This document shows, piece by piece, positions 2 to 44,099 of a stretch of 64,000 bases of DNA (positions within the stretch are counted from its first letter, which is position 1; each line of letters starts with the position of its first letter). This DNA is from Sparassis latifolia. Its lineage: Eukaryota; Basidiomycota; Agaricomycetes; Polyporales; Sparassidaceae. Position numbers and translations under genes: made by a program. The DNA lies in NCBI GenBank assembly GCA_018466975.1, contig CM031556.1, positions 682,001 to 746,000 on the forward strand, read 5' to 3'. Below the pieces are notes generated by a model. The model had not been told where the DNA came from, did no database searches, and saw only the letters and a program-made list of their open reading frames with translations.

Positions 2-304
2 AAGATTCTACCCCAGATGGGCGGTTTAATCTGTCTGCTCTTGGCAGCTGATCTTTGCTATGCAGGCAAGGTCAGAATGCCAGATGTCGATGAGATGGCC
101 AAGGTGGTTGCTCATGTGGAGAAGGGTGCTATTGCTGGTCTATCTCTTTGTTCATTGACATCTGCAGGATCTAGTGTGGAAGAAGTTGAAGAGGCATTTA
201 AGATGGCATACTCATTTTTGGATGCTCATCTTACTGTTGAACAGAAGAGACTTATTGGATTTGATCCAATTATGACAGAACATTTGCTCTGTAAGTTCCA
301 GTGA
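2..304 (+). CDS. C-terminal fragment of an A2/B2-family protein (5' end outside window)
   Basis: The reading frame is open from the first bases and ends with TGA after CKFQ. It aligns over its whole length with the C-terminus of the proteins ending at 21837 (plus) and near 5735 (minus). Shared features are a hydrophobic GGLICLLLAADLCYAGKV-like segment, a DEMAKVV..VEKGAIAGL block, a helix like FKMAYSFLD and the ending PIMTEHLLCKFQ, against PIMLEHIFCKIQ in the copy at 21.8 kb. I recognise no catalytic domain; the family is known to me only as hypothetical agaricomycete proteins. Its 5' part lies outside the window, so intactness cannot be judged. It is the third copy of this family here. Confidence 0.7.
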   Translation, partial: KILPQMGGLICLLLAADLCYAGKVRMPDVDEMAKVVAHVEKGAIAGLSLCSLTSAGSSVEEVEEAFKMAYSFLDAHLTVEQKRLIGFDPIMTEHLLCKFQ

Positions 305-869: not shown

Positions 870-1345
870 TTTTGCCCAAAAATCAAAATAGCTTACAAAT
901 TCATACATTTAAATAACATGTAAGGCACGTGGCTGGTCTGCGTGACAAAGAACATGATATAACACATTAAATATATATACTCCAATCAAACTACAACTCA
1001 AGAATGCATCGTAATAAGCATTAACCTGTCACAGGCTGAGATACACAAGTAAAAGCATAAATGATGGGTAAAATAATTTTCTGCTATGTGCACGTTAAAA
1101 ATATTACAAATTTATATGTTTAGACAACATATTATAAGCAGGTGGAGTCATCGAGCATGAAACACAACCACTATGAACTTAGACCATTTTACACCTCGCA
1201 TTAATGGAACAATCCTCCGCCTTTATGCTCACCTATATCCTGAGGGAAGAAAGGTCAAGCTCACCTGTATGATAAATGCAGTAAGCTTTACACTACTCAG
1301 GTATAATAATACCAGCCTATATTACACAGGTGAGTCAGAACATCG
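870..1345 (+). repeat. Inverted repeat arm, partner at 3767-4215
   Basis: The stretch reads clearly as the reverse complement of 3767-4215. It includes the CACACTACTCAGGTATAATA-type block, a short apparent ORF (DHFTPRINGTIL.LYAHLY) present in both arms, and the ATTTAAATGT/TGTAAGGC end. The arms lie on either side of the left end of the 10.9-kb element at 1741, one outside and one inside. The translated ORF matches nothing I know and may be chance. Confidence 0.75.
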
Positions 1346-1740
1346 CCAGGCTCCTCATCAGAGTCAGAGTCACTGCCGGCCCCTCCCTTCTTTTTCCAGC
1401 AAGATAAGGAATAAATGCAGCTCGAGTCTTCGCTAGATGGTCCCAAGACTTCACCGTATCGGCACGAGTAGTTTCAAAAGTCTCCAAGTATGCAGTCAAA
1501 CCCACACCAAGCTCCCAAGGGCCAGGCATAACATTTTTACCATCAACCTCCATTGAAAATGCATCCAGGAACTTGTTAACGTCCATCTTCACCTTAAGCA
1601 TGGAAGGCACCTGACAGAGAAGGAAATGTGCATACTGGGCGATGCCTCTTGTATAAAAGCGAAAAAAGGCTTTGGGATCACTCAATGCTAAGCCATCGGT
1701 CGCCCAGTTGGCCTCATTCGTATAAACAATGTTCGCATTG
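1335..1740 (-). pseudogene. Fragment of a third copy of the DSBH-dioxygenase-like gene (A1/B1 family)
   Basis: The minus-strand translation ([19 protein letters not shown], then [20 protein letters not shown]) aligns with the B1 exon starting at 16978, where the equivalents are MVTDGLVLCETHSLFNWF and FMHSFSMNMNGTRVYPDKWE. The fragment stops exactly where the TIR element begins at 1741, so its upstream exons are separated by the insertion, and its 3' side runs into the repeat ending at 1345. The DSBH motif itself is not present here; only the downstream domain remains. Its strand is opposite to the A2-family fragment at 2-304, unlike the A and B loci where both genes share a strand, which suggests rearrangement. 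Confidence 0.7.
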
Positions 1741-2938
1741 TTACGATTCCTGAGGTACAAAGGAATCGTTCTTTATGGGATAGGGCTTCCGCCAAATTTT
1801 TGAGGGACAGATCCAAGTGCCCCTATGCGTGAGAACGACTTTTCAATACAAATTTGTATGCATCAGATGCCCCTAGTCCTGGGTTAGGTCTAGGGTTTAA
1901 CTACAAACTTTGTAGTGCCTGTTGTTACTGTACTACATCTTGCATACAGTCGGTCTTTCAAACTGATTGTAGTGAAAACCAATGCGACTTGTCCAAATAA
2001 TCTACAACAACAGTGCCACATTCCCTCCTCTCTATCATTACAGAACTATTCATGTGTCCCATCCTAGCTCTTCTGGTTAATTGTCAGTAGTTCATTTAGT
2101 GGAACAGATAATTATATTATTCACCTCCGAGAAGCTTAATCAATGTGTCTTGCAGCACTATCTTCCGGTATTGTTTATAAGAAATTAACTTTGGCTTTGA
2201 CCTTTTTGCCTCCGCATCTCTAGGTTTCTGCTTAGTATGTGTCATATTCATACTATTGCATGCACTCACAATACAATCTCGACACATTGTCTTCTGCTTC
2301 TCCAGTCTACAGTCCAGGTTGAAGTACTTGTATTTCTCTGCCCATTCTCAATTGACTGAAATCCTTCTTTGATTGTCAGCTCTCCATCAGTTTCGAGTCT
2401 TCTTTCATGTATATGCCATTTATCTGGATCATTTATCTCCCAATACCAGAACATCTCGTACTCGTTCAGCTCTCCATGACAAAAGTATAACTCGTGTAAG
2501 GTCGGTAGTTCTCTGAACCACATCATGACAGTAGTCTCTTTATGTTGCAACATCACATTGAAGTATTGCTGACCAGTGTCAATTCTAGTGAGTTCCACAG
2601 GTGGTGTGAATGCAAGCATCGGTGTGTCGAGATGGAATGTATGCAGGCAAGGCAGGCGGGCAAGAAGCTGTAGAAAATTGGGTTGATACTATGGCATTTC
2701 TTTTCTCTGTATGCCATTTAGTTGCAGAATTCTTAGACTGGATAAAATGCTTACTTGCACTCATGCTAATAAAGAATCCTCATTATGATATAAATGGAGT
2801 TGCTCGAGCGTACTTCTCCCATCTTTCCACCATGCAGTTATGCATTCGAGCTGGTTTGTACACACCTGATAGCTGATAGTGTACTTCAAGCTTGTCAAGG
2901 TGATTATAAGGGGTATAGCTGCCTTGGCCAATATTTGT
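1741..2938 (+). repeat. Left terminal inverted repeat of the 10.9-kb element
   Basis: It pairs with 11484-12678 in reverse complement, from the terminal TTACGATTCCTGAGG to the inner limit at CCAATATTTGT. Single-base differences are scattered along it, so the arms are not identical and the element is not brand new. It contains the terminal hairpin, a telomere-like TAGGGTTAGG tract at about 1892-1905 and the LRR-like gene fragment. Confidence 0.8.
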
Positions 2939-2979
2939 ATTTGCAGTACATTGTAGTCGAGGCAGTGCCGTAGATCCAA
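2266..2979 (-). pseudogene. LRR/F-box-like gene fragment, left TIR copy
   Basis: Two minus-strand stretches (2761-2979 and 2266-2619) carry the same protein as the right TIR at 11425-12156: LTSLKYTISYQVCTNQLECI, then PPVELTRIDTGQQYF and ELPTLHELYF. The rhythm of leucines (LEQLHLYHNED, LPTLHELYFCHGEL) resembles fungal F-box/LRR-like proteins, but no F-box is seen and the assignment is tentative. A TGA stop after DSLLA occurs at the same place in both TIR copies. The left copy has further breaks between the two stretches, so it is a relic. Confidence 0.5.
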
Positions 2980-3766
2980 TTCATAAATGTTCAGAAATGT
3001 CAGATGATTTTTGTTTGGGCCATTGCTGAGATAGCATCTGCATAAGGACTTCTCGTACTTGATAATTGCTCAAAAAAAAGCAATAAGCTGATCCTCTGTA
3101 TCGATAATGATTGTTGGAGGAGGAAAGGGAGAAATGACTGTAGCATCGAGTCAACATTTGCTGGTGAGTCACAGCTTTTGCTGCCATGTCCTGACCTCTG
3201 TCTTCCTTGCCTCTGTCTCAGCCTCCTTCACAGTAAGAACCTTCTCTGTGCTGCGGGTCAAGTGTGACCAGTCCGATATGACCTTCTTGCATATTAGAAT
3301 GCTGACTTCATTTGGAAGGGCTGGAATAATTTGATCTGGAGGTGCTGACATGACACATATAGTTCTCTGTCGAACAGCATATGATAGTTTACACATGTTA
3401 AATTACAAATCATTGCGGGATTGGTATGCTAAATATGTTAGAATAATAAGGGGGATTGTGCGCTAGCTCTACGACCTCATTCACCGCGAAAATATCTTAT
3501 GAATGTTCGTTTAGCATTAGTTTATATTATATGTCAGAATGGTATTCTTACCAACTTCCTTGGGGAGACACTCATGATACAGAGCATTGAGATTGATTCT
3601 TGTGTTGCCGACTTCAGCAATAAACTTGAAATATTGTCCAGTGATAACTTCCTCCTTCTACAAATATGTGAATATCTGGATGAATGCTCGAGAGACAACT
3701 AAACAAACATTTTCATCTTTCTCAAGATTTAATATCATTCGTGTTGTATCTGGTGCAGTGACGATG
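2980..3766. other. Stretch inside the element with no recognised gene
   Basis: Only short unrelated ORFs are seen on either strand; none has a recognised motif. It lies between the left TIR and the inverted-repeat arm at 3767. Confidence 0.4.
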
Positions 3767-4215
3767 GCGATGTTCTGACTCACCTGTATAATATAAGCTG
3801 GTATTATTATATCTGAGTAGCATAAAGCTTACTGCATTTATCATACAGGTGAGCTTGACCTTTCTTCCCTCAGAATATAGGTGAGCATAAAGGTGGAGGA
3901 TTGTTCCATTAATGCGAGGCGTAAAATGGTCTGAGTTCATGATGGTTGTGTTTTTCACATCAAGCAATGACTCCACCTTCTTATAATATGTCTAAAAATA
4001 TAATTTTGTAATATTTGTAATATGCTTATTATAGCAGAAAATTATTTTACACATCATTCACACTTCAACTTGGATATTCTAGCCTGTGACTGGTTAATGC
4101 TCACTAATGCATCTTTAAGTTGTAGTTTGATTGTATTATATATATTCAATGTGTTATGTTATGTTCTTCTTACGCAGAAAGTCACACACCTTACATATTA
4201 TTTAAATGGCTGAGT
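3767..4215 (-). repeat. Inverted repeat arm, partner at 870-1345
   Basis: Reverse-complement match to 870-1345, starting with GCGATGTTCTGACTCACCTG and ending near TTATTTAAATGGCTGAG. This arm lies inside the 10.9-kb element while the partner lies outside it. Confidence 0.75.
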
Positions 4216-4240
4216 TTAGATATCGTGTTGATAGGTCCTT

Positions 4241-4407
4241 CCTGCCATACGAAATGTCAAGTGCCTCAGAGCACTTAACGTTTCATACAGCGAGAAACGT
4301 GACTCGAGAAGCACGTGCAGTCAGGTGCACAGCAAGTCACGTTTCCCACCGTATGAAATGTTAAGCACTTTGAGGCGCTTAACATTCCATACAGCGAGAA
4401 ACGTGAC
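4241..4407. repeat. Two tandem foldback (palindromic) units
   Basis: The unit at 4336-4407 is a 72-bp palindrome beginning GTCACGTTTCCCACC and ending GAGAAACGTGAC, with the centre AAGCACTTTGAGGCGCTTAA. A partial, diverged copy lies at 4241-4303. A third copy is at 44026-44096. Such short near-perfect palindromes at dispersed sites behave like tiny foldback MITEs. Confidence 0.65.
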
Positions 4408-4674
4408 CGCCAAGTCCACATGACCTCTGGACTTTAGATCTTCGACATTCTCGATCCTCTCCTCCTCTCCTCCTACCCTCCTCTCCTCCTCCCATCTTTC
4501 ACGCTTCAAGTCCTGAGAAGATGCTCCTGGACAAAGGAGACTGGTACTCAGGTAAGCGCCACAAAATTTCCCACCCATATTTGTACTAATCTTTGGGACA
4601 TACATAACGATGTCCCTCCTCTCCCCTCCACAGATCTCATATGATCGAATGCACCTGAAGCCCCACAGAAGGAC

Positions 4675-5085
4675 ATGCCAGGGAACATGAATGAGCCCCC
4701 CGCTTCAAATGTGGGGGCTTCGTTCTTCTTCCTCAACATTTGATGTGCGGCGGCTCCACCTCCTCCCCCAGGCCATTCCCCGGTCCCTCCACCATCCTCG
4801 GATGTGGCACATGCATGGTCCCTGGCACAACCCCATGCCAGGGAACATAAACGGGGCCCCCGCTGCAAACGTGGGGGCTTCGTTCTTTGTCCTCAATGTT
4901 CGATGCGTGGCTGCTCCACCACCTTCTCCAGGCTATTCCTCAGTGCCTCGACCACCCTCGGACTTGGAACATGCATGCAACCTGGCACGTCCTCGTGATG
5001 GGGAACACAAATGAGGCCTCTGCTTTAAATGCGGGGGCTTTGTTTTTTCTGGTCGACGTTTGACGCACGGCTGCCCGACCACCTC
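4675..5085. repeat. GC-rich minisatellite, about 160-163-bp unit, about 2.5 copies
   Basis: Copies begin at about 4675, 4835 and 4998 with ATGCCAGGGAACATRAA-like sequence followed by a GC-rich block and GTGGGGGCTTCGTTCTT. The short ORFs that cross this stretch on both strands are products of the repeat. Confidence 0.8.
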
Positions 5086-5579
5086 AGTTTTGACTGACCT
5101 CACTAAATATACAACACCCTAGATTACGTTGGACCACTATCCGTACAGCACACATTAATTAATATATATTAGTCTGTTGTTTGCTCTGATGTTTTTGCAG
5201 AATTCGCTTTTTTTCTTGCTGTTTCCATAACTTGAATATATATTTTGTAAAGCACAACTGTTGAAACTCAGCCAGTCAGTGGCTGTGGCTGTTTCTCGCA
5301 GCATAGTGATGGTATCAACTCTCTGTACTCCTCTCTATGTACTCGCCTAAATGAATACCTTTAGATAATTTGGTTGGGAGATACACATCTACTTAAATTC
5401 GGGGCCTCTGATGTCACAAAAAAATTGGCAAAAAAGCTGAATGGTGTTCTATAATACCTGTATACATACATGTACATAGAAATGCCTACTGAAAAATACT
5501 TCAAGAATGCTTCTGTACCATAAACTTTATTTAAGTCAGTGATGATGCTAGTTCAATTTAAGAAGAGAGACTTACAGAC
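5086..5579. other. Non-coding spacer downstream of gene A2
   Basis: No ORF or motif of note. The sequence is AT-rich and probably includes the 3' untranslated region of gene A2, which is transcribed towards it. Confidence 0.35.
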
Positions 5580-5734
5580 TTATTTTGTATGTTCAATAGA
5601 CTTCTGAATAGCCTCCTTGGTGATCGTCAAAGGAATAGGGAAGAGCTGACCAGACAGATCACTAGCATTCACACCCATAATCCAATGATCCTGCTCTTTC
5701 TGTACTTGAATGCTTATTTTCTGAAATGTCTCTC

Positions 5735-8347
5735 CTAGACTGCAAATGAGGGATCTGTACCAAGAGACCTTGCAAAAGAAGTGTTCAAGAAACATAACTC
5801 CAAAATGAAGTACCGAGAGACCTTGCAAAAGAAGTGTTCAAGAAACATAACTCCAAAATGAAGTGTTTCCTTGTCCTCTGGAGAAAGATGGGTATCAAGG
5901 TGATCGTAAATCACAGTGAATGCTGCACGAACCCAGGGTGCATGATCTGGCTTGCTGACATTGAACCCAAGGATATTGAGACCTTGGAATCCTCCTTTTT
6001 CTCCATGTTTCAAAATAAATGCACACATCTCCTCAAGTTCTGAATCCTTGCAAATGCCATATAGTGCAAGATTGTTCGTGAACTGTAGAAGGGTAAGTCC
6101 AGAGTGTAGAAGCGGCAGCTTTGTTTCTTGAGCCCATTTGAATGTCTCACTCCAGCTCTTGCGAGGACCAGTATAGGTAGCTGGATCTTGGTCCAGCATG
6201 TCACCAAGATATGTCTCCCATGCATTTTGAGTCTTTTGCGACCAAAATGGTTTGAATTTCTCTTCTGTAGTGATTACTCGAGATGGTCCTCCTTTCTTTC
6301 CTGGTATTGTGACATGGATTTGAAAAGCATTACTGGCTTGTCCCCAACAAAACATGTTCTCATATGGCTTTCGAGGTGCATTGCTGGTACCCGGAGGATA
6401 TTGACTCTCATATGTTTTGATGGCCTTATTGAATGTAGCAACACAATCAGCCTCAGACTCAAAGCATATGTTATTGCTTTTGACAAAGTCTGTGTTTAGG
6501 CTTCCTAGATCTGCTGACATATAAGAGATTATCCATGAGAGTCCTACACGACAAGTAATCTTCTCGGGTGGTAGTGCTTCCCAAATTTGATGCGCATAAA
6601 TATTGTCTGCTCGCACAGGGTCATAAAAGTCCAGGTTCTTCATCGGCTGTCCATATCCCATAGAAGTGACTGGCAGCCCATCCAGAATATTTCGTATGGT
6701 CTCATCTCCAACAGGTTTGCCTCTCCACTTGTTGAGAGACTCTCTCAAAATCAACTCAATCTCGCCGAGGAATGGTGCACCTTCAGCATGTATGAGTGTG
6801 TCTGCAGATAGTGGACCTGGTGGGGGCTTTTCTGGTATGACCTCTATTACTCTAACCAAGCCTCTCCTGGCTGTCCGACCGACATGCTTTGGTACCTGCT
6901 GTGGTCCAAGGCGTTGTAATGTCTCAGATCTTTCTAAGAGAATCACATTTGACCATACTTGATCTCCAACTTTCCTGCACAGTTCCTGCAAATCTGGCTC
7001 TTTATCTAAGAGAGCGGTGATGCTTTCATACAGATCTTGGAGCGCTCCAACTGGATTTTTCAAAATCTTCGCTGATAGTCCTTGATCGCTCATGTTTTGA
7101 AACAGCTTGGCAGGGCTTAGCAGTATATCGACTATGTTGTTTGATGCAAATATACCATCTTCGCCAGAGAAGACACTGAGAATGGTCTGAAGAATTGCTC
7201 CTCGATTGATGCTACGGCATTTGATTCCACCACGTTCTCTTTTATTATCCTCCGATGATTTATTCTGTGCAGAGCATCGGAAATTTGACCTGTATTTCTT
7301 GTCGTGCTCGCTCATATGGTCAAAAATGAGAATTTGGGATAAAAGTTCCAAGAGAATATCAGCTGCCTGAGTATGCAACTTATTCTTCGACCGCTTTCCA
7401 GGTAGCTTTGGAATGGAAACCAAATTCGTTCCAGCATCTGGTACAAGGCCAAATAAGTTCCGAGGGATTATTGCAAGTGTTAGATCTGGTTCATTGGATG
7501 TCTGCTGACCCTCTACAGCAGGTGGTGGAATAGCAGATGTCTTTGCTCTCTTTGCTCAAGGCCTTGGAATATACGAAGCACTCTAGCACCGATATAAGTC
7601 TTCCACATACTTGAGCATATGTACAACAACATCTGCAAACTGACTATACTTTGTACGAATATCAGCTTCTCCATGTTCTCTATACCAGTCAAACACATTA
7701 TAGACCAAGTCTGGTCCAATGTCTGTGCACCAGCGAAATATGACAACGTATGCTCTGCATATCTCCCATCTGAGTGCACGATTCAGCGTGTCTGTAAATG
7801 CTTGAGCAGCTTCGAGTATAGGTAACACTTTGATTGTCTCTGTTAGCTGTTTAAAGATGACCTTGGCACTCTCAGCAGACCATTGTCCTTCCAGTAGTGA
7901 CTTGATCTCCTCATTGATCTCAGTTTGTATCGCAAGACCATGAAGCCATTGCTTTGGATTCTGAAGGTCGTTCAGCAGACATTCTAGTTTGGAGTGCATA
8001 GAACGAAGTTGTTCGAGTTCAGAGTGTAGAGATGCTGAATTAAACAGAGTCATTAAGGAAGTGTTGCCAAGATTTTTCATCGTAGGTCGACTGATAATAG
8101 TCTGAGATTCTGATGTTTGTTCATTTGACTGCTGTATATCATATTCTGGGAGACACTGAACAGTAAACTCATGTGCAGATGAGCTAACTTCGCCTATAGC
8201 TGTCTCAAGACTATTCATGGAGATGTCTTCACCCAATGAAGTATTTTCATGATCTTTCTCGTGACGTCTTCTTCGAGTACGCTCATTAGACGATAATGGC
8301 AGTGGCGGACCCTCTTGCCCTCTCGCCTGCCAGAAGGCCTGAATCAT
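5735..8347 (-). CDS. Gene A2: long hypothetical protein, B2 paralogue (two visible exons)
   Basis: Two reading frames on the minus strand join across a short intron near 7540-7584 (donor GTGCTAGA, acceptor AAAGAG) so that DLYR continues with AKTSAIPPPAVEGQQ. The first exon has a basic N-terminal patch (SNERTRRRRHEK), a helical middle (LHSELEQLRSMHSKLECLL) and a helix-rich end. The second exon has about 600 residues with PEKPPPGPLSADTL, an AWETYLGDML segment and a C-terminal block (LALYGICKDSELEEM, MFLEHFFCKV) shared with the copies at 2-304 and 20893-21837. No catalytic domain is recognised. The real start may be upstream, because A1 (ending at 8538) lies close by in the same orientation and the two may form one long gene. 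The C-terminus is disturbed by a 53-bp tandem duplication. Confidence 0.65.
5759..5864. repeat. 53-bp tandem duplication inside the A2 C-terminus
   Basis: The sequence GAGACCTTGCAAAAGAAGTG with about 30 further bases occurs at 5764 and again at 5817. A 53-bp period is not a multiple of three, so the frame changes after CKVS. One frame ends RYFILELCFL..DPSFAV; the other continues as WYRSLICSLGETFQ to a stop at 5580. Confidence 0.85.
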
Positions 8348-8537
8348 CTCACTTGCACTATAATATCAATGATCAGGTTTGTTTTTATTATAATCATATT
8401 AGAGTACTCACTGGATATCACTGGTCTTTACCCAAGAATCTTGCTGAGTATCATATCCCAGCCAACGAACATGGTATTGGTTGTTCTAGACATTTGGATA
8501 AGCATGTTAAACAATTATATATTAGTATAAAACAAAC

Positions 8538-10776
8538 CTTTGCATCAAAATCCAGGATCTCCGACAGCTCTTGCTCTGAGTCAGACTCTTCATTATTAAA
8601 CTCCTCTGGAAGTGTGGTCAAATTAGAGTCTAGGCTTGACCGTCCTCTTTTGTGTCACTTCACTGTTCCTGTACTACAGAGTTGTGTGTTATCCTGACGA
8701 CTGGAAGATGTCGCCTTCGGATCAAACATGGAAAATGCTGGACGAGATGGCATAGTTTTGAAAGCAGGTTGACTTGAGCGAGTAGCAAGTTTACAATCTT
8801 CTGTAGAATGAACTGGCAACATGGAGGAGGATTCTGCACTTCCAGTTATTGCAAGCTGAATGTGTGAGCCACGTACCAGATCCCGCGTAAGATTCATATA
8901 GTACTTGTTAGCGATGTTGAAGAATCGCTGTACACGAGACCGCATCTCAGCAACAAAAGCTTGGTCGTCTCTTGGATTTCATTCAAGTGGCAGACAAGCA
9001 TGTGTTTCTCCATTCTCATCTTCATAACTGTGACTAGCCAAGTAGGCATTGATGTCTATGAGCACATTCCGAAGCTTGAATGTAACATTCCAGTTGTGCA
9101 TCGCTTGCTCCCATATCATCCTATTGTAGAACGAATGAGCAGTTCCCAAGAAGATTCAACCATGCTCAACAAAGTTTAGACATGAACTCTGCTCAGAATT
9201 TGCTAAAATAGGCTCATTTTCAAAGCCCACTGGAGGTGAAACAGACAGGGCAGAAGTACGCTTAACCCCTACTGTTGATGGGTATGAAACATATCCGACA
9301 CATTTGACCACACCAAAGCGTGTTCCAATCTCCTTCAGAATTTCAGCTTCCCACTTTCGCATCTCTTCTGGTGGAGCATAGGGAGCACTTCCACCATGTA
9401 GATCATTGCCTTTGAATGCAGCAAATAGGGTTAACTCTTCTGTCTCACGAATATATGTTCCAGGTCGAGCAAGCAGAAAAGCACCTGGGTCTGCACCTGT
9501 TGGAAACATGTAAGAATTTGTTCAAATATTATCATACTTAGTCAACTTACCAGGGGGAAGCCTGAATAGCAGTGTGAAAAGTGTCCAAAATTTATGAGCA
9601 TCCTTGCCATCAGCATGGAGAGTCCCTTGTATTCCAATGGACATGATCATTTCTCCTCCGTTACATTCTGAAGACACGTTCATTTGCAAGCTTGTATTAT
9701 TAGGATCCAGTCCACCGAAACCAATAACATTGTTGTCAATTTGATAGAACTTCATGCAAGTCCATTCTTCACAACTGATGCATTTCGGTATAATTAGAGA
9801 GAAGAGAGCATTTAGCGCCTGTGTGATCGCAGATATGGAGAGTGCAGCAGCAGCTCCTGTTGTTTGAACAGCTGGTTTGAATATACCCAGGCCATTTCCT
9901 TCTTCTACTGTTGATGCCAAACTGTATGATCCATTCACAGAAACTGTGCCCTCAGAGTTTAGTAAAGCATTCGTGCACGCCTTCCTGGTCTCTTGATCGG
10001 TTCGGTTATTTAACTTCAACCCTGGAAGTGCGTAGACTGGAGGAACTGCAGGTTCATCATTTTGAGCTGGACAGCCTTCCCAAGTATACTTTCGAAGTAT
10101 ATCAACATATTTCTGAATTTCGTCAAAGTCAGGATAGTGACTCAAAGACTCCATAGTATGTAAACATGCTACAGTTATCGTATCGTGAGGATTTCCATCC
10201 AAAGTCTGAATGAATGGAATACCGGCAGGCATTTTAACCATTCCCAGTATAGGATCTATCTTCATGACTCCATCCTCTATATATGGATCTACCTTTGGTC
10301 TGGCAGTCTTCAGTATTCTTGGACGCTCCTCTGTCAGAATGCGCGAAGTATTAAGGTCTGATGTGAAGACCCAACCAGCGGTATATTGATTGTCTCTCTC
10401 GACATTCAATTTCCATACTGGCAATTGCGGGTAGGCATACAAAGGGTCTGGAGGTGGTGGCGGTGGTGGACACAGTTCATCATTTTCTATCACAGGACGC
10501 GGCTGCTGTGATCGAACCTCTTGCTCCCATGTCGGAGGTGGATTCTCTTCTGAAAACGGAGATGCTGGAGTTACGAATCTTGGCATACCAAACTGATATC
10601 GCTCCCAGTCCACATTTCTGGTTTGGAGTCCTTGTTGCAGCCATGACAAATGAGAACTCTGTGTTGATGGTATTTGGCCGGAGCCTGCAAAAAAATAATT
10701 TTATAAGCGAACAATTGAAATAATGGGTAGCGGAGAACTAACCAGTTGTGGTATTTATATTACTCCTAGTCGTCAT
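8538..10776 (-). pseudogene. Gene A1: putative Fe(II)/2-oxoglutarate dioxygenase-like (DSBH) protein, with three in-frame TGA stops
   Basis: The start ATG is at 10776 (MTTRSNINTTTG). Intron 1 is 10685-10742 and intron 2 is 9497-9550, both GT-AG. After a proline-rich linker (PPPPPPPDPLYAY) comes a region ending LHADGKD; its HxD codons are at 9609-9617. About 55 residues later is NDLHGGSAP, with the distal His codon at 9396-9398, then an Arg 13 residues on (EEMRKW). HxD...H plus a basic residue is the metal and co-substrate signature of DSBH oxygenases. The TET/JBP branch, which is expanded in mushroom genomes, is my best guess but unproven. Reading continues in frame through TGA at 9156-9158, 8979-8981 and 8655-8657 into an acidic tail (NNEESDSEQELSEILDFDAK). 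Homology with B1 continues past the stops, so they look like CGA-to-TGA mutations. Confidence 0.6.
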
Positions 10777-11424
10777 ATGTTCCTTCAAAAATGCAGAGTT
10801 TCTGTTTGATCGTACTTAGTTTATATTTAAAACATAAATACTGTCATATAAATTTATCTGAATGATTACGACTACACGCTATACTGGTCGGGTGCCTTTT
10901 GCTCGAGTCAAATGTAGTCTGCACCTGAATTTATCAAAAGTTAGCTTGTATAACAAAAATATAATAAAGGAACTTACTCGATATCACACAACACACCACC
11001 GGTGAAATTTTAAAAAAAGAATACACAAGGCTCTAGTACTTCAGAACAAGCCCAGTCGTGAGCTTTAGCCAGAAACACTGATTGCAGTGAACTCACCTCC
11101 CAGCTAGTCGGGATAGCCAAGAGTTGAGTGAGAATCAAAAGGAATAAGCTCCGACCTAAGTGAATCTCTAGACACTAAGTTGTGTCCAAAGTCTTCTGAT
11201 ACACCTTCTTGCTGACTGCTTAAGTGGTTACCTCAGCCTCCTCGGCCTTTTGGTCTCTCGGAAAGCCCCTCCCTGAAGGTTAGTTATCAGGCGATCCCCT
11301 GCGGCAACCTCGGTTCACTTTCGTGACCTCAAATGGTACCTGGCAGTCGAACTGGGTGTATCAGAATATGAAATGTCAACGCCTTGCAAGGTGAGTACTG
11401 CAATGCAGAGTGATCTAAAACAAG
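10777..11424. other. Probable promoter side of A1; no gene recognised
   Basis: The space between the A1 start and the right-hand LRR-like fragment has no ORF of note. It is likely to hold the A1 promoter, but no specific motif can be assigned. Confidence 0.35.
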
Positions 11425-12156
11425 GTGTATTGTGGTCTTGGAGTGTGGCGAGCTTGGCAGTGCAAGGCAGCTGTAAGTAGATCACAAATATTGGCCAAGG
11501 CAGCTATACCCCTTATAACCACCTTGACGAGCTTGAAGTACACTATCAGCTATCAGGTGTGCACAAACCAGCTCCAACATATAACTGCATGGTGGAAAGA
11601 TGGGAGAAGTACACTCGAGCAACTCCATTTATATCATAATGAGGATTCTTTGTTAGCATGAGTGCAAGTAAGCATTTTATCCAGTCTAAGAATTCTGCAA
11701 CTAAATGGCATACAGAGAAAAGAAATGCCATGGTATCAACCCAATTTTCTACAGCTTCTTGCCCGCCTGCCTTGCCTGTATACATTCCATCTCGACACAC
11801 CGATGCTTGCATTCACACCACCTGTGGAACTCACTAGAATTGACACTGGTCAGCAATACTTCAATGTGATGTTGCAACATAAAGAGACTACTGTCATGAT
11901 GTGGTTCAGAGAACTACTGACCTTACACGAGTTATACTTTTGTCATGGAGAGCTGAACGAGTACGAGATGTTCTGGTATTGGGAGATAAATGATCCAGAT
12001 AAATGGCATATACATGGAAGAAGACTTGAAACTGATGGAGAGCTGATGATCAAAGAAGGAATCCCATTGATTGAGAATGGGCAGAGAAATACAAGTACTT
12101 CAACCTGGACTGTAGACCGGAGAAGCAGAAGACAATGTGTCGAGATTGTATTGTGA
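11425..12156 (+). pseudogene. LRR/F-box-like gene fragment, right TIR copy
   Basis: One plus-strand frame is open except for a single TGA at 11659-11661 (DSLLA-stop-VQVS). Around it leucine-rich segments follow each other: LTSLKYTISYQ, STLEQLHLYHNED, ILSSLRILQLNGIQ, LARLPCLYTFHLD, LLTLHELYF. This periodicity suits the LRR half of a fungal F-box-like protein. A short additional sequence (VWRAWQCKAAV) precedes the TIR boundary at 11484. The same fragment in the left TIR shows it was copied as part of the TIR. Confidence 0.55.
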
Positions 12157-12678
12157 GTGCATGCAATAGTATGAATATGACACATACTAAGCAGAAACCT
12201 AGAGATGCGAAGGCAAAGAGGCCAAAGCCAAAGTCAATTTCTTATGAACGATACCGGAAGATAATGCTGCAAGACATATTGATTAAGCTTCTGAGTGAAT
12301 AATATAATTGTCTGTTCCACTAAATGAACTACTGACAATTAACCGGAAGAGCTAGGATGGGACACATGAATGGTTCTGTAATGATGAAGAGGAGAGAGTG
12401 TGGCACTATTATTGTAGATTATTTGTGCAAGTCGCGTTGGTTTCTACTACAATCAGTTTGAAAGACCGACTATATGCAAGCTGTAGTATAGTAACGACAG
12501 GCACTACAAAGTTTGTAGTTAAACCCTAGACCTAACCCTGTACTAGGTGCTTCTCACACATACAAAATTGTATTGAAAAGTCGTTCCCACACCTTGAGGA
12601 AAAAGTGCATGTCCTCCCAAAAGTTGGCAGAAGCCCTATCCCATTAAGAACGATTCCTTCGTACCTCAGGAATCGTAA
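11484..12678 (-). repeat. Right terminal inverted repeat of the 10.9-kb element
   Basis: Reverse complement of 1741-2938. It ends with AACGATTCCTTCGTACCTCA then GGAATCGTAA, which forms the terminal hairpin. A CCCTAGACCTAACCC tract lies about 150 bp inside the end. The last 280 bp also resemble 44477-44744. Confidence 0.8.
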
Positions 12679-12849: not shown

Positions 12850-13260
12850 TTACGATTCCTGAGGAGGTATGAAGGAATCATTCTTATACAGGATGAGCTC
12901 TAGAGGGCGCTTATCCTGTCACGACGTTTTCCCCAAACTGTGGGAACGGTTTTTCACTACAACTTTTGTATGTGTGACCTAGGGTTAGGGCTGAGTTTAT
13001 AGGAATGCCACAAGGGTTAGGGTCAGGCTTCATCTACAAATTTTCTAACAGCTACTTACTCAACTACAATGTAACTACGGGCGGACATTCAAAAAAAGTT
13101 GTATTGAAAACTGACACGACTTGTACAAATCACCATCAACAGATCGGTGGCTAGGGCACTCAGATTAGATAACCGATGGCACTCATGATTGCGATATGTT
13201 GAGATTAGCCTCGACATCCTATTTTAGTCAATTTGACGCTTTCAGACCATTGCATTCAGG
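12850..13260 (+). repeat. Left terminus of a related element family (type 2)
   Basis: It starts TTACGATTCCTGAGG, followed by a TATGAAGGAATCATTC hairpin arm and CAGGATGAGCTC. It runs in parallel with 48536 onward: GCGCTTATCC, GTGGGAACGGTTTTT, TAGGGTTAGG, TACAACTT..CTACGGGCGGACATTCAAAA. Its matching right end is not found in the window, so the extent of the element, and whether it carries the five-gene cluster to the right, is unknown. Confidence 0.6.
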
Positions 13261-13308
13261 CCAGTATTGTTTGCGTATTGTCCAAAAACCTTGTCTACGA
13301 CCCTTATA

Positions 13309-15248
13309 TTAAATAACTCGACGTGGCAGTACAGGAGCTCTCTCAAAGGTATTGTAAAATGTCTGACAGTAAAACTGAATAATTGATCGCTCTGAAGCCA
13401 TGTTGTCAACCTCTGCTCGCTTTGGTTCTACTGGTATATCTAAGATATCCGGGTGTGCAGGCCATCGTACCAATACGCGCCTCAATCTCTCTACGAGTCG
13501 GCCTCTATCATTAAAGTGATTTGATACTAGTCCAATGTTCAGCGATGGTATGACCTCTGGTCGCATATTGCATAGCATGCCTATACTGCGATACACTACG
13601 TCATCTTCCAAAGCAGCCATTTCCACTGATGCAGCATTGCGTGGGATGATGGTATGATCCAATAGTAGGAGCTCAAATCGATAGCTCAACTCGTGAAGCT
13701 CCCATATGATCTGTTGCATAACGCGAGTGTCAAGTATCGTGTATTGGTGTTCAAACCATGTAACGACGTCGTTATGGTCTGTCGCAATCGCCCTGTCGTA
13801 AAAGCAGGTACCCAGAATCTGCGTAATCTTGTTTCTTCGAGCATTCGCATGAGAGCCTTGAGACGTATTCTCCTTCGATGCCGATTGGTTCAAGATGTCC
13901 CGCCAGAGTTGGCTTGACACCTGCCTTGCCACGGGTTGGTCGCTCATCAGAATGACCAACCATGGCTCACGTAGCCGAAGCCAGTTCGTGAAGTATCATT
14001 GCTGATGATCTCCTTTTGGTAGAAGCAGTCGGGGATTAGGAAGCAGGTACGTGAGATGTCCGGCAGTTGGGGGTAATCGGGCATGGTTGACCATTCGAAG
14101 TGCGTCTGTCCAAATCGGCATGGCAGGAGGCATTAGCTCGTGCATAATATCGTCAAAGTAGTCGCCGACTCCTTGTTTGGAGCTTTTCCCATGCATTGGC
14201 ACATTGGTAGTTGGGTTTGCAGACCCTACATTTTAAGTTAGTGATAACGTGAATGTATGCATGTAATGATATCCACCTACCGACATGTTGTACTTGCAGT
14301 GCCCCGGGATCATCTATATTCCTCTCATGTCCTGTTGTTGCTGCTTGACCCACGTCACGATAAGTGCATCGTGCACGTCCTACTTGGAGTGTATGTTCGG
14401 GTCCTGCCATACCCCGATATAATGGTTTAGGCTGGTGGCCGTGTTCGTCACTTGTAAACATAATTATTCCCATTTGTTTGGGCATGTTGAAGTCCACGAT
14501 TGGCGTAATCACATAACCATTATTCCCATTTGTTGCACCTGGGCATGTTATTTGAAGTCCACGATATGGCGTATGATCAGACCATGAACCATCGAGGTAA
14601 GCTCATTGTACGATGACTATTTGAGCCACCATGTCTCGATGGCGAAGCAGATGGGAACCATACTGGGAGATCAGTTGGACGACCTGTGTAGCCATAACCT
14701 GAGCCTCGATCGTCAATTTTCTGGATCATGCGAGTCTAGCCACGTCCACACGTATTGGCTGAGTGCCCGTGCCCAGCGCATTAACTCATCGTGCAATGTC
14801 TGGTTGGGTAATCCAAGCGTGGTGACCGACGATTGTTGTATTAGAACCCAATCTTGGAGCGTACATGCATGCCACATCGGACAGTTTGTTGGGTCGTGTG
14901 ACAGCTTCCGCGGTATGGCAGCAAGGTAAAGGAGGTCCTCATTACACACTTGAGGCCATTGAACATAATCTGCTGCGCTGTATCGTTCATCTGAGCATTC
15001 GCAAACAGTAATTGGGCCCACGATGGGCTTCGGTATATAGCGGACATTTGGTGAGGTAATTATCCAGTTGCCGTTGACGGATTCTGCAGCGCATAGGCCA
15101 TCGAGATGCGACAGTATGCGTGCCGGCTTAACACATTGGCAACCGATTTATTGATACGTAGTATTATAATACATACCATCGGTATGATGCTGCGCCTGTA
15201 GTACGTATTTCCCCTCTGACCTTTGTGGCAGACTATGCATATTCGCAA
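13309..15248 (-). CDS. Gene 3: multi-exon hypothetical protein of an agaricomycete repeat-like family
   Basis: The C-terminal exon is a long minus-strand frame (QLWRDILNQSA, VVTWFEHQYTILDT, IIWELHELSYRFELLLLDHT) ending FYCQTFYNTFERAPVLPRRVI. The frame is open upstream across a TGA at 13996-13998 (DHQQ-stop-YFTNWLRLREPW), which would read Arg as CGA. An earlier exon joins by an intron at about 14226-14280 (QVQHVG to SANPTTNVPMHG). A further exon reads IITSPNVRYIPKPIVGPITV, then LLYLAAIPRKLSHDP. I recall proteins with these blocks as abundant hypotheticals in mushroom genomes; function is unknown to me. Upstream exon boundaries are unresolved. It is divergently oriented to B1. Confidence 0.6.
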
Positions 15249-16284
15249 TGTAAATTATTCAACGATGGAAATGTTACTATGTCTGATATGCTCACCGGTC
15301 AACTCTCCCGTCTGAACTTTCATTCCGGTTGATTTCCGTCATTGGCGGTGTTGCGTCCATGCTAGAGGATCGTTCGAGTGTTGCAAACTGCTTGGATTGG
15401 TGAGCCATAATGTATCTGTATTACGATATAAACACTCACCTCAGGTCTATGCATGGCACGATGGTGATACGATCTGTGTAATCCTACTTCAGTAATAGTG
15501 AGTGCAGCTCAAAAACACGGCGACGCAGAGTCGAACCGTGCTGGGTGTTGGCCCGATGCAGAGTCAAAGACCAACAGAGCGTCATAGCCTGGTGTGAGTA
15601 TACTCACCTTTTCCCTCGACCTTCCATCGTTAGACCATGTTGCTTTTCTAGTATCTCTGTGGGGAGGTGGTGCGTCGGCGTGGATAGTGAGGTTCGGCAT
15701 GGATAGTGAGGTACGGCGTCAGTAAAGTATGGCGTTGGCGAGTCCGGTGTCATGTAACATGTGTTTAGTATATTGTATCAGTAACGAGTAGGGGCCGATT
15801 ATACTCACCTGAGGTTGTCGACGCAGATCGCACCGATAAGTGTACCTACTCACTCTGATTGTGTCAGCATAACGGCGGCAGCTAGTGAAACGTACCGTAT
15901 GTTGTGCGCGTTCGCCAGGGTCTTCAAATGATGCAGATCGTGTCAATAATGACCTACCCTCACAGGTTGTGTCAGGATAATGTGGGCAGCTACTGGAACT
16001 TACCGTATTTTGGGCGCGTTTGCTGGGGCCTTCAAACATCGGTTGGAGATCGATTGTTGCGGAAAGAAGGTTGCTGGAGTGGGACTGGGCAGTAGGAGGA
16101 GAGCACAATAGCAGGAGAGGGCAGGAGGATGGGATCAGTCGAACTGTGGCTGAAGATCTGGGAGCAGAAATGCTAAGTCTCATTGCACGTGAGTTATCGC
16201 ATCACGTGAATTCACGTGAACACGTTTTGGGTTATCTTATTGATTCACGCACGATTCGATCTTGCTGTGGCATGGCTGTTCTGA
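15249..16284 (-). other. 5' region of gene 3, possible small exons with a local tandem repeat
   Basis: Short minus-strand stretches between GTGAG-type donors look like small exons, for example PPPHRDTRKATWSNDGRSRE (15600-15680). Two related blocks at about 15850-15930 and 15940-16030 (FEDPGERAQHTV and FEGPSKRAQNTV on the minus strand) indicate a duplication of about 110 bp. CACGTGA motifs near 16187-16222 occur three times and could be regulatory between the divergent genes. Exon assignment is uncertain. Confidence 0.35.
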
Positions 16285-17919
16285 CTTTCATTCGCCCCTC
16301 CTACATCCTTCCATTCTCCCTCAACACCGGCGATCATTTGGCGTATTCGCGGCACTCATCTTGGTATAGAATCCCTTGAACAGGGCCCTGAACATTTATG
16401 CGTCCATCTCAAGAGGCAGGCAGATCTTATAAATTTGCCACACCTCAGTTTCGATGGTAATTATGCATTCCCCAACATGCAACTCAACATTGCAGCTACT
16501 CAGCTGCGCGAGTCTGGTACGAGGGCATTTAGGTCGAATGAACCAAGCTGACGAGTTGTTTAGCCACCGATCTATCCAGTCAGCTGGGTACATTTGGCGG
16601 GGCCCATATAGATGGCCATGATTCACGCGGTGGTGTTACGAGTATGACCGCGTATTCTGACCTGTTGCCGGAGGACCATCCCGGTCTATTCTTCCTGCTC
16701 GAGTTGGCCATCTTTGTTGCTTTACACGGTCTCGTATGTCTGAACTTCTGTGGTTTGAGATATCACGGCAGTACTCCCCCGACCATGATAGATCCCAAAC
16801 TGTGGTCTTATTATTTCGTCGTCATCTGCTATCCTCCGGAAGTTATACTGAGCCACACAGCATTATACGGCTTCGCTCCCTTGCCTAACGGTGAGTTACT
16901 CACTCTACCTCTGGAAATGATTGATCCCATGTGAGTGCATTGCCGTGTAGCTTGATAATTTGCTCACCTGTGTGTAGATATGACGATCGCCATCTTCGTC
17001 CGTGGATCACGCATTCCAGCATGGTGACGGATGGACTAGTTCTATGTGAAACCCACTCGTTATTTAACTGGTTCTGTCAAGCCATGCACCAATTCGGATC
17101 CTATTTGGTACGCCAGATGCCCGAGAAGATGAATGTTCAAGTTGATGGTGATGCGTTTATGCATTCATTTTCGATGAACATGAATGGAACACGTGTATAC
17201 CCAGATAAGTGGGAGTTGGCACCTGGTCCATCTGCGACAGCGGCCCACCTGGAAGCTTCACGCGCATGGGATTCATTAAAGGCTGCACACAGCAAGTTTA
17301 TTCCGTTGGTGATCGGTAAGCCGGCGCAGTCAGGCATAACTGCTTGTAAGGGTCCGCGTCCCGGTATGTGGTATTACCTCTTGGTGCTCTCATGCCTTAA
17401 GAGTAATATTTGTGTAATGTAGCTCATGCCGCTGCTGCGCCTTCTAAATGGAAGGCCAGAATCTCCGCGGATCCTCCGTGTAAGTGCCTCTTTTAGTTAA
17501 TGTACGGCTGTGTTTTAATTGTAATTTTTGCACTTTAGTAACTCGCGGTCAAAAGCAGAAGGCAGCTGAATTGACAGGTACGATCGGGTCGATTTCTCGC
17601 ATTAATAGTGATCGTCCTGGTGCGTGTAATTCCTTCATATGTATGTTGATATCTCTAATATTTTATTGTAGTCTAGATAATCTTCATAAGCATGCTCGAG
17701 TTTTGGTGAGCGTTGATGTGCACGCTACAGGTGTACTAGCTCGTTCGAACGGATCGAAAGAGAGCAGTGTGACGTCTGGTAAGTGTTGTGTATTTATTGG
17801 ATATGATTCAAGCTAAGATTCATTTATTGCAAGCCGAGCCTCTTGCGCCGAACACTATACCTATAACCGCGAAAGGACGATTGGTGATAGTGGACCAATT
17901 CCGGCCTGGACTCAAATGA
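16285..17919 (+). CDS. Gene B1: putative Fe(II)/2-oxoglutarate dioxygenase-like (DSBH) protein, A1 paralogue
   Basis: The frame opens near 16285 (5' end unresolved) and runs HLGIESLEQ, FDGNYAFPNMQLNIAATQL. The intron at 16517-16563 brings QLRES to ATDLSSQLGTFGGAHIDGHD. HxD (HID) is at 16605-16613. 53 residues on is LRYHGSTPP with the distal His at 16764-16766, then Lys 11 residues later. The intron at 16931-16977 gives DPIYDDRH. Further GT-AG introns link exons at about 17423-17479 and 17540-17620, then 17668-17778, and 17834 to TGA at 17917-17919. The spacing matches A1, supporting a DSBH fold acting on a nucleic-acid base or other substrate; TET/JBP kinship is inference. The region after the HxD domain (MVTDGLVLCETHSLFNWF) is shared with A1 and with 1335-1740. 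The final TGA may also be a mutated CGA, since the frame stays open beyond it. Confidence 0.6.
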
Positions 17920-18772
17920 ACTCGAGCTTTCTCGAGCGCCGCGCTTGCAACTCGATCTATTCGCGAAACTTATCATACGAGATTGCAAGGAGATTCCAAT
18001 TGCAGGAGCAGCCACCGGATCACGCATAAGCCTGTGTACCGTGTGTATCGTTAGTTCTCTGTATAGCATTTGTAGTTTTAACATGCCTTTTTTTCCGTAT
18101 TATCTCGTGTTTGGAGCATATAAATCTCTTGACTGACGACGTTGTAACTTCCGAAGAGGATGAATGGGAAGATGTCCCCCTAGAATCTGAACAAGAAATG
18201 GGTGAAGGTGGTGGCACTCCTCCGACGCATTCGGACAATGTGTCTGTTTCTGAGGGTTCAATTTCGTCACGTGCGATTATCACCGAGGTGCGATCAATGC
18301 TCGAGGCTGACTCGGTGGGCTCCTGCGCAGTCCGTGGATGATCCATTGGACATCGATATGCCTCGTATTCTTCCTCCGTCCGTTAACACAGAGGGTAGTT
18401 TTCATTTTGTATGTTCAATATTGTGCTGATCCAGATATACAGGTATTGTACCGGATCGAGTGGTGTTGTCGTTCGCGAATTCAGTTAGCTCTGTATCAAC
18501 TGCTGTGGATACGGTGCTTTTGGTTCAGTCAAGGTGTCCTAGTCTGCCCTGTCGCGATTCCGTTCTTGCCTTGTTCAGGGTAAACAACTTGGTGGAAACT
18601 TGAAACACATACCAGGCCGCCGTCAAACACCTGAAGACAGCCCATGATCAATCTGTGTGCTCGTTTGCACAACATGCGGACTTCAGCAAATTCTTGTCAG
18701 TTTTTGCAACCGCGCAAGTTTCACCTGACTTTGCATTGATGATCTCGAAGATCTGGCGGCCTATAATTGCCC

Positions 18773-18780
18773 TTACGAAT
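18773..18780 (+). repeat. Target site duplication TTACGAAT (left)
   Basis: The 8 bases directly before the element recur directly after it at 20144-20151. Confidence 0.9.
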
Positions 18781-20143
18781 CACTTCAGGGTACCCTTCCG
18801 ACCTAGCTCTTAGCTTCAACATAATCTATATTGTGTAGTGGCTAAGAGCCTCTCAGGTGTCAGACAGACCATGGTACCAATACATGTCCCAGGGCATTAT
18901 ATGGGATTACCCAGGGCAAAGGCAGGGCAAAGGCTGGTCCAATGGCACAATTATCATATGGGGTGTCCTATAGTACTAGGACATTGATATTTATATCCCA
19001 GTATTACTGGTTGTCCCATGGTGTCAGGGGTACATAGGGATGTCCCACTATTAGTAAAAGATGTATTTTCTGGCTATTGTATGGTAGTTTTTTTATACTT
19101 TATTCCACTATCATATTATCTAAGCCTTAATTATAAAAACAGTGACTATAGTGATATAAACAAGCACTTTATTTGCATATTATATAAGGTAGGATCTCCC
19201 ATTTTAAGGACATCCTAAGATGTTATTTTAAGATTCACAGATATTTAGTCTCTTCTTTAGCCTGAAGTTTCTATTTAACTACTATAATTATCTAGAGATT
19301 TATACTAACAGTTGAATTACTAAGGTTTAAGAGTGACAGGTCCTTACAAGGGATATCCCATCACATAAAGGGACATTCCATAATACAAAGGTGTCATTCA
19401 GTGAATGCATTTCTGAGCGTAACTTGACTGAAGTCTTAGGTCAAATGCCTTTCTTTTTTCATTCAAATACAGTATATGATAGGAGACATGACAAGAATAT
19501 ATCTCCTTTGCTAGTATATTAGTAGACTGAGTAGTTCTATTTCTTGAGACACTTGGTGAAAGTTGTAGTATAGCTATGATACATACTATATGCTAAAGAT
19601 TATATCATATTAGTCTGAACATTATGTCAGAAAATGTAAAATTGATTTTAAAACACGAGAATAAACATTATTGTTTGACCTGTCTTAGTTGTTATATGAG
19701 CCAATGAAGTTGTTGTACATGCTACCAATAGTAATATAGTCTTTATAACATTACAAATGCATACACAATACTTGATATGGGATATCCTGCTTTCTATAAA
19801 TATTTCACCATATATAAAGTGCAAATAAGGCACTTATTTACAGTATTCTAGTCACTGTTTTTATAATTAAGGCTTAAATAATATGATAGTGGAATAAAGT
19901 ATAAAAAAACTACCATACAATAGCCTGAAATAAATATTAATGTCCTAGTACTATAGGACATCCCATATGATAATTGTGCCATTGGACCAGCCTTTGCCCT
20001 GCCTTTGCCCTGGGTAATCCCATATAATGTCCTGGGACATGTATTGGTACCATGGTCTGTCTGACACCTGAGAGGCTCTTAGCCACTACACAATATAGAT
20101 TATGTTGAAGCTAAGAGCTAGGTCAGAAGGGTACCCTGAAGTG
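18781..20143. mobile_element. 1363-bp non-autonomous TIR transposon with 8-bp target duplication (hAT- or Zisupton-like)
   Basis: It begins CACTTCAGGGTACCC and ends GGGTACCCTGAAGTG. Homology between the arms continues inward for several hundred bases, including AGGCAGGGCAAAGGCTGGTC and a TTTTTTTATACTTTATTCCA block. Short insertions interrupt the left arm (about 18990-19060). Flanks are perfect TTACGAAT duplications. Eight-base duplications are typical of hAT and P elements and also of Zisupton in the KDZ group; no transposase is encoded, so the superfamily is undecided. It lies in an exon of gene B2. Confidence 0.88.
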
Positions 20144-20151
20144 TTACGAAT
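20144..20151 (+). repeat. Target site duplication TTACGAAT (right)
   Basis: Perfect repeat of 18773-18780; the B2 reading frame resumes here. Confidence 0.9.
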
Positions 20152-23239: not shown

Positions 23240-23286
23240 ATCGCCTGTATGTTATATCGCCTGTATGTTATATCGCCTGTATGTTA
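23239..23286. repeat. Three tandem copies of a 16-bp unit
   Basis: TATCGCCTGTATGTTA begins at 23239, 23255 and 23271. It sits exactly at the likely start of gene 4 and could alter its 5' end. Confidence 0.9.
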
Positions 23287-23287
23287 T

Positions 23288-27900: not shown

Positions 27901-27989
27901 AATGGACGGCTGCAGCTAAGACTGACAATCCCAAGTTATCGTTGTCATTGAATTTGCTCGCTATTTGTATCATCATATCACGACTGTAA
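24239..27989 (+). CDS. Gene 5: many-exon acidic/basic hypothetical protein of an agaricomycete family
   Basis: Numerous tiny exons encode a basic N-terminus (TRRGRGGTRKTPKSK) and low-complexity charged stretches. The largest is exon 26328-26680 (SSDEESEDDILPDENQNYD, KKTSKYLDDDGDEDGNLKVR). Then follow PPAPKFKCEVIVPELLEVLY and SWSTMRVILRLFHSALF. The C-terminal part from 27127 reads LFLNPS-stop-GDPRFF, ICLMFGFSGRSK, LLPLNQEWEWYIAFMG and, after two introns, LEESFDLAKVHVTCPLWKKE with final TAA at 27987-27989. The TGA at 27185-27187 fits a mutated CGA; I recall an NPSR-DP motif at this place in relatives. SP/TP-rich short exons look like a disordered, chromatin-style tail. Function unknown. The 356-bp duplication repeats its first exons, either of which could provide the start. 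Confidence 0.6.
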
Positions 27990-34885: not shown

Positions 34886-34894
34886 CTCACAAGT

Positions 34895-44096: not shown

Positions 44097-44099
44097 TCG

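What the first reader, a model, noticed from the sequence alone, without database searches (positions are those of the whole stretch)
1741..12678. Long-TIR element with a dioxygenase-like gene and a partner gene as cargo, and no visible transposase
About 1.2-kb TIRs with exact TTACGATTCCTGAGG ends enclose genes A1 (HxD...H DSBH signature) and A2. The same gene pair in the same order occurs at 16.3-21.8 kb, and fragments of both families occur at 2-304 and 1335-1740, so the pair multiplies as a unit. It is known that TET/JBP-type oxygenases are expanded with KDZ transposons in mushroom genomes. Here the pair lies in an element whose ends and partner gene I cannot match to a described type. Mobility by these TIRs and TET/JBP kinship are inference.
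Basis: partly seen in the sequence, partly recalled or inferred. Interest (0 to 1): 0.85.

Follow-up and report, generated by a model that had tools for sequence, protein, structure and literature searches.

The report
Chromodomain TET-like gene in fungal Helitrons
A fungal genome, probably of a mushroom relative, carries a decayed gene for a TET-like DNA-oxidising enzyme fused to a histone-reading domain; it appears to ride in rolling-circle transposons called Helitrons, perhaps to undo their silencing, rather than in a long-inverted-repeat element as first thought.

The parts
1741..1773 (+). Helitron2-type 5' terminus: ATIR TTACGATTCCTGAGG with 5' hairpin (ACGATTCC / GGAATCGT)
   Evidence: z -4.5 for this sequence, -3.9 for the other form folded
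1741..4207 (+). 5' body of the A-bearing Helitron2-type element, colinear with A on C5 and C9, with matching spacing on C7 and with an insertion on C12
5750..10776 (-). Gene A (the finding's A1+A2): exons 10776-10743, 10684-9551, 9496-8538, 8485-8412, 8357-about 5750; decayed (stops at codons 503, 562, 670, 992, 1001)
   Evidence: full-length relatives
9397..9619 (-). HxD ... H facial-triad signature of the dioxygenase domain (crosses an intron; coordinates approximate)
8340..8557 (-). Chromodomain (crosses introns; coordinates approximate)
   Evidence: Pfam PF00385 E 2.8e-9 on a hand-spliced piece
5736..7555 (-). Conserved C-terminal region of gene A (the finding's A2), fold untested
11484..12678 (-). 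Second, inverted copy of the 5' terminal 1,195 bp, ending abruptly at its inner edge
12850..34894 (+). B element: Helitron2-type element with 5' end, genes X, B, Y, Rep/helicase and 3' end
13309..15147 (-). Gene X (unknown; probably several exons)
16542..21837 (+). Gene B: diverged relative of A (HxD...H at about 16.6-16.8 kb, conserved C-terminus), split by an insertion
22552..23133 (-). Gene Y exon (unknown), next to B on C5 and C3
28200..34074 (+). Helitron Rep/helicase gene (DUF6570, Helitron_like_N, PIF1), interrupted by stops (introns not excluded)
34845..34894 (+). Helitron2-type 3' terminus: subterminal ATIR (one mismatch), hairpin, CCCACTCC..ACAAGT
48536..53139 (+). Gene-poor Helitron2-type element, 5' end to 3' end, same terminus family
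37514..44744 (-). Gene-poor Helitron2-type element, 5' end at 44744 (1 mismatch), 3' end at about 37514
2..304 (+). C-terminal end of a third family member (continues leftwards to C5:681444)
1335..1740 (-). Fragment of a family member, broken off at the 5' terminus at 1741

Best explanation
The interval is part of a nest of Helitron2-type rolling-circle transposons. They carry a single large gene that encodes a TET-like Fe(II)/2-oxoglutarate dioxygenase, a chromodomain and a long conserved C-terminal region. In the B element (12850-34894) a diverged form of this gene is encoded together with the Helitron Rep/helicase, which most likely moves that element and, acting on the shared ends, the A-bearing and gene-poor relatives. 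The A element begins at 1741; its 3' end is lost in the window, where a truncated inverted 5' end of the same family (11484-12678) now abuts it and imitates a long-TIR element. Most likely mechanism (inferred): the chromodomain takes the enzyme to H3K9-methylated chromatin, where the TET-like domain oxidises 5-methylcytosine, so that the silenced Helitrons can be expressed. Shown here: gene architecture, predicted TET-like fold of a relative, Helitron2 termini, linkage of B to Rep/helicase on two contigs, CpG-type decay. Inferred: chemistry, histone mark, benefit to the transposon, mobilisation in trans.
For: Termini: 13-bp ATIR within TTACGATTCCTGAGG, part of a 5' hairpin, and subterminal CCTCAGGAATCGTT (0-2 mismatches) plus hairpin at four places in the window, the features that PMC3627910 gives for Helitron2. 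Insertion without visible duplication at R|T in three junctions compared by eye with related uninserted sequence (two against six copies of a repeat; one in an A copy on C2); first flank base a pyrimidine in 37 of 43 listed ends. B element: 5' end, X, B, Y, Rep/helicase in one order on C5 and C3, spacings 459/460, 715/721 and 5067/5027 bp, but 6886/9165 bp for X-B; identities 94, 92, 93, 92, 87%. A plus 5' end colinear or equally spaced on C5, C7, C9 and, with an insertion, C12. Fold. Chromodomain in A and in most full-length relatives: (several below Pfam's cut-off); aromatic residues at the HP1 positions in P0001 and P0002 (sequences; positions recalled). Decay: 792 of 961 differences between A and seven stretches of other copies (two overlap) are transitions, 413 of these in CpG/TpG context (no chance expectation computed).
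Against: The 5' and 3' flanks of the B element do not rejoin to one target: the right half of the target of 12850 is not in the window. The left half of the 12678 target is not left of 1741. No 3' terminus was found for the A element in the parts of C12 and C7 held. On C7 an inverted pair of 5' ends is 98.2% alike over 1,532 bp, as a TIR element would be. The window's arms are 95% alike over the shared 1,022 bp, little below the 96% to C7. Foldseek alone gave no PDB match below E 1e-3 and lists FTO first; model pLDDT 75 from 17 sequences. The A copies on all five contigs show stops (some may lie in introns), so activity today is doubtful. No chromodomain was detected in B (17.4-18.8 kb not scanned by Pfam).
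Confidence: 0.7

Rival explanations
1. A true long-TIR (cut-and-paste or foldback-like) element carries gene A, moved by an unseen transposase.
For: Arms of 1.2 kb with exact ends; a second inverted pair on C7, 98.2% alike over at least 1,532 bp.
Against: The right arm of the window stops at 1,195 bp where C7 and C12 copies run on; the split in the arm tree puts the left arm with C12 and the right arm with C7 (support 0.935); C12 and C7 copies of A have other DNA at the place of the right arm; no target duplication seen by eye in the seven possible pairs read; the same ends bound Helitron-type elements with 3' hairpins.
Confidence: 0.12
2. Gene A is not cargo: it belongs to another, unidentified unit, and Helitron2 elements merely inserted beside and into it in a shared centromere-like region.
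For: 5' ends interrupt A copies on C2, C7 and C9; 39 of 45 exact ends lie in one 110-kb stretch per contig, so insertion into each other is common; A has repeats of its own on both sides in C12.
Against: The same 5' end lies downstream of A, in the same orientation and spacing, on C5, C7 and C9, and with an insertion on C12; the related gene B is linked to Rep/helicase on two contigs.
Confidence: 0.2
3. The dioxygenase domain does not act on 5mC but on another base or on protein (FTO/AlkB-like or a new chemistry), or it is a scaffold.
Confidence: 0.3

Closest known systems
TET+ transposons of fungi, in particular TET+ Helitron2 of Agaricus bisporus (Kojima 2025, PMC12730594; abstract, sections 1, 3.1, 3.2, 3.4, 4.2 and the figure legends read, other passages by search)
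   Same: A TET-like gene inside DNA transposons of Agaricomycetes, including Helitron2; suggested role against methylation silencing
   Different: The paper's PE type has HxE and its AG type is close to CcTET; here HxD without detectable similarity to TET/JBP models, a chromodomain and a long C-terminal region. 'chromodomain' occurs 0 times in that paper (listings); its supplements were not readable here
Helitron2 group (Bao and Jurka 2013, PMC3627910; FoHeli elements, PMC5148889; passages read)
   Same: 5' ATIR with hairpin, subterminal 3' ATIR followed by a hairpin, Rep/helicase protein, no target duplication seen
   Different: Long subterminal arrays of 49- and 98-bp repeats, extra genes X, B and Y; insertion point seen here R|T, whereas PMC5148889 gives TTTT|T or C for Helitron2
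NgTET1, CMD1, TET2, CcTet (solved structures)
   Same: Predicted double-stranded beta-helix fold
   Different: 8-12% identity; fused to chromodomain and C-terminal region
Chromodomain retrotransposons (chromoviruses) (PMC2864245 seen in a search listing only; targeting role recalled)
   Same: A mobile element that encodes a chromodomain
   Different: There it is on the integrase (recalled); here on a dioxygenase

Membership tests
Helitron2 (rolling-circle transposon) | Short ATIR at the 5' end, part of a 5' hairpin | tested here: met
   definition
Helitron2 (rolling-circle transposon) | 3' ATIR 20-30 bp from the end, immediately upstream of a hairpin | tested here: met
   B element at 34845-34894 and three others in the window; hairpin z only -1.6 to -1.7; not found for the A element
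Helitron2 (rolling-circle transposon) | Rep/helicase protein within the element | tested here: met
   for the B element; none seen in the A element as far as held
Helitron2 (rolling-circle transposon) | RepHel falls in the Helitron2 clade of the protein tree | not tested
   no tree made; reference sequences not at hand
Helitron2 (rolling-circle transposon) | Insertion without target duplication | tested here: inconclusive
   single junctions fit, but no insertion with both flanks and its empty site was found
TET/JBP dioxygenase | Facial triad HxD/E ... H | tested here: met
   Searches (20 proteins; 17 proteins): HxD nearly invariant, second H nearly invariant or invariant
TET/JBP dioxygenase | TET-like double-stranded beta-helix | tested here: met
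   predicted model of relative P0015; FTO-like proteins not far behind
TET/JBP dioxygenase | Sequence match to curated TET/JBP models | tested here: not met
   no Pfam TET/JBP match; no PDB sequence match. Hence 'TET-like', not filed as AG, PU or PE type
TET/JBP dioxygenase | Oxidation of 5mC | not testable with these tools
   needs protein
Long-TIR DNA transposon | Both arms recur together around the same interior with target duplications | tested here: not met
   the C7 pair is an exception for the arms alone

The most novel reading that the evidence does not exclude
A widespread, unannotated family of mushroom Helitron proteins couples a histone-mark reader to a TET-like enzyme, i.e. a transposon-encoded, chromatin-guided DNA demethylase (or DNA hypermodifier) that homes to heterochromatin and frees Helitrons from silencing; the centromere-like clusters of each chromosome would be its playing field.
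Probability: 0.45. Interest if true: 0.85.

Novelty: new variant of a known kind. Interest (0 to 1): 0.6.

Why it matters
[quoted passage not shown] A chromodomain in the same polypeptide gives a directly testable targeting route. The dioxygenase and C-terminal parts match no Pfam model, so annotation pipelines miss them. The case also warns that two Helitron2 5' ends facing each other look like a long-TIR element.

Tried and rejected
Long-TIR element: rejected for the window by the arm comparison and by other A copies. A1 and A2 as two genes: rejected, as the seven longest relatives with both halves are single proteins of 1,440-1,742 aa with the chromodomain between. Helitron-coding element with two TTACG ends (L046): rejected; its 5' 553 bp and its Helitron part are separate repeats that meet at query 556-559 (40 of 155 candidates scored). 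Target duplication by flank symmetry: none seen; of its 43 flanks several rest on matches with up to two mismatches that may be internal; none was dropped. Bridge from the dioxygenase to a named family by sequence: 81 relatives at E <= 1 among the 7,998 candidates scored, none with a precomputed Pfam domain. A loose pattern for HxD..H matched 23 of 95 returned proteins; many of the rest are partial, others escape the pattern, so I rely on the alignments. P0001 lacks HxD, by a gap in its gene model or sequence. Papers: none holds chromodomain+dioxygenase+Helitron+fungi; the listed parts of searches showed no title or abstract start that describes the fusion; passages of PMC13297926 and PMC4289320 did not either; the 2014 PNAS paper on fungal TET/JBP is not held.

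Full report
Setting. The window is C5:682001-746000 of an unnamed 41.4-Mb genome of 22 contigs. The best protein match for gene A is from Grifola frondosa (50% identity over 46% of the query), so the host is probably an Agaricomycete; this is inference.

Observation. The arms and the exact ends are there. The 15-mer is found 45 times exactly in the genome; 39 of the 45 fall into one 110-kb stretch per contig, a pattern that suggests centromeres, which I could not test.

One gene, not two. Splicing by recognisable introns joins A1 to A2. The join holds a chromodomain (Pfam E 2.8e-9). Relatives of 1,440 to 1,742 aa from Grifola, Crepidotus, two Panaeolus species, Agrocybe and Favolaschia are single proteins with the same order (the Chromo match of several lies below Pfam's cut-off). 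Two relatives have extra domains in the gene model: P0009 with DUF6532 and P0013 with RdRP and a trace of a Pif1 domain (E 0.0065); the latter may be a neighbouring Helitron helicase, but such fusions may also be annotation errors. The gene in the window has five stops before its 3' end and a tandem duplication near the end (seen).

A large unannotated family. A profile of five relatives found 81 proteins at E up to 1, all below 1e-45, none with a precomputed Pfam domain; 73 of the 81 come only from the jgi, ena or lgn sources, presumably environmental.

The ends are Helitron2 ends. PMC3627910 (passages read) defines Helitron2 by a short asymmetric terminal inverted repeat at the 5' end that takes part in a 5' hairpin, and a 3' copy placed 20-30 bp inside the 3' end just before a second hairpin. 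TTACGATTCCTGAGGTACGAAGGAATCGT folds as such a 5' hairpin, and CCTCAGGAATCGTT (0-2 mismatches) followed by TGCCATGCGAAGCAATGGC-like hairpins and CCCACTC occurs at 34845(+), 53090(+), 37563(-) and 60939(-). One-ended copies outside the clusters are explained by this asymmetry. Three junctions could be compared by eye with related uninserted sequence: 12678 and 12850 against six copies of a dispersed repeat and an A copy on C2. All fit insertion between a purine and T, read towards the 5' end, without visible duplication. Among 43 listed ends 37 have a pyrimidine as first outer base (two-sided binomial p 1.6e-6, relatedness ignored).

The B element. Starting from the end at 12850, genes X(-), B(+), Y(-) and the Rep/helicase(+) follow, and a 3' end at 34845-34894. 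The same series lies on C3 in mirror orientation: 5' end 827624, X, B, Y and Rep/helicase at 807610-810054. Spacings agree: 459/460, 715/721, 5067/5027 bp; X-B differs, 6886/9165, with a 1.36-kb insertion in the window's B. C8 holds Y-like and Rep/helicase pieces in the same arrangement (1104436-1105006 and 1098733-1099522, about 4.9 kb apart) without a B match. Other Rep/helicase matches are pieces on C1 (73-91%) and places at 66% or less (a list that may be incomplete). So B belongs to a Helitron2-type element that encodes its own replicase; that gene is interrupted by stops in both copies. The flanks do not rejoin, so I cannot show one intact insertion.

The A element. From 1741 rightwards the sequence up to 4207 and on through gene A is colinear on C9 (652834 back to 644422) and evenly spaced on C7; C12 has the same parts with an insertion; the C2 copy is cut by another 5' end. 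So on four of five contigs A travels with a Helitron2 5' end, about 4.0-4.5 kb beyond its 3' end on three of them. Beyond 11481 the window departs: C12 and C7 continue with DNA related to each other (72-77% alike), while the window has the 1,195-bp arm. That arm matches both C7 ends at 96% and the left arm at 93%; the left arm matches the C7 copies over 1,534 bp, the right arm only over 1,195 bp. Over the 1,022 bp shared by five copies the figures are 96 and 95%, and the tree separates left arm plus C12 from right arm plus the C7 pair at support 0.935. I conclude that the TIR look is made by two insertions or a rearrangement. Against this, the two C7 ends are inverted and 98.2% alike over 1,532 bp, so some inverted pairs may arise in one event.

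Function. About half of the transitions between A copies are in CpG/TpG context (413 of 792; no chance expectation computed), which fits methylated and deaminated transposons. CpG observed/expected is 0.53 for the A unit, 0.85-0.99 for the cargo part of the B element, 0.61 for its Rep/helicase and 0.27-0.28 for the gene-poor parts at 35-64 kb. The high value of B may mean youth or recent arrival as well as protection. A chromodomain with aromatic residues at the HP1 positions in the Grifola and Crepidotus proteins (positions recalled) next to a TET-like domain suggests an enzyme led to methylated chromatin. This remains inference.

Novelty. TET+ Helitron2 is in print (PMC12730594, section 3.2.1). 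I found no description of a chromodomain-fused TET-like enzyme (searches, listed parts only), within an open-licence library that lacks the main 2014 paper.

Noticed in passing
window 18781-20143: Insertion inside gene B with 222-bp inverted ends (97%), CACTTCAGGG...CCCTGAAGTG, flanked by the 8-bp repeat TTACGAAT: looks like a hAT- or KDZ-type non-autonomous element (recalled); a near relative lies in L100 (96.6% over 1,164 bp).
   Followed up: partly
C3:827595-827623, C2:654022-654050, C8:1113540-1113568, C12:508473-508501: The loop of the 5' terminal hairpin occurs in both orientations (flip and flop) among related elements; four exact flipped copies. Could record hairpin handling during transposition or a template switch.
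   Followed up: partly
window 50.3-52.1 kb, 61.8-63.7 kb, 38.4-39.3 kb: Subterminal arrays of 49- and 98-bp repeats in the Helitron2-type elements, mirrored between neighbouring elements.
   Followed up: no
C7:890432-916483: Inverted pair of Helitron2 5' ends, 98.2% alike over at least 1,532 bp, 26 kb apart, enclosing only the 3' half of an A copy.
   Followed up: partly
window 12850-28200 versus 34900-64000: CpG observed/expected 0.85-0.99 in the cargo region of the B element against 0.27-0.28 in neighbouring gene-poor Helitron DNA.
   Followed up: partly
L046:2237-4273 (minus): The Helitron protein itself holds a chromodomain-like stretch by eye (with WEPYTSYKDL); Pfam did not call it at E 0.01.
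   Followed up: no
window 13309-15147 and 22552-23133: Genes X and Y accompany B on two contigs; Y-like exons also occur on C1, C8, C12 and C10. The four exons scanned match no Pfam family.
   Followed up: partly
window 2266-2688 and 11662-12156: The 1.2-kb arm holds an open frame of 140-164 codons that looks like an F-box/LRR-type fragment by eye; no Pfam match for the right-hand copy.
   Followed up: no
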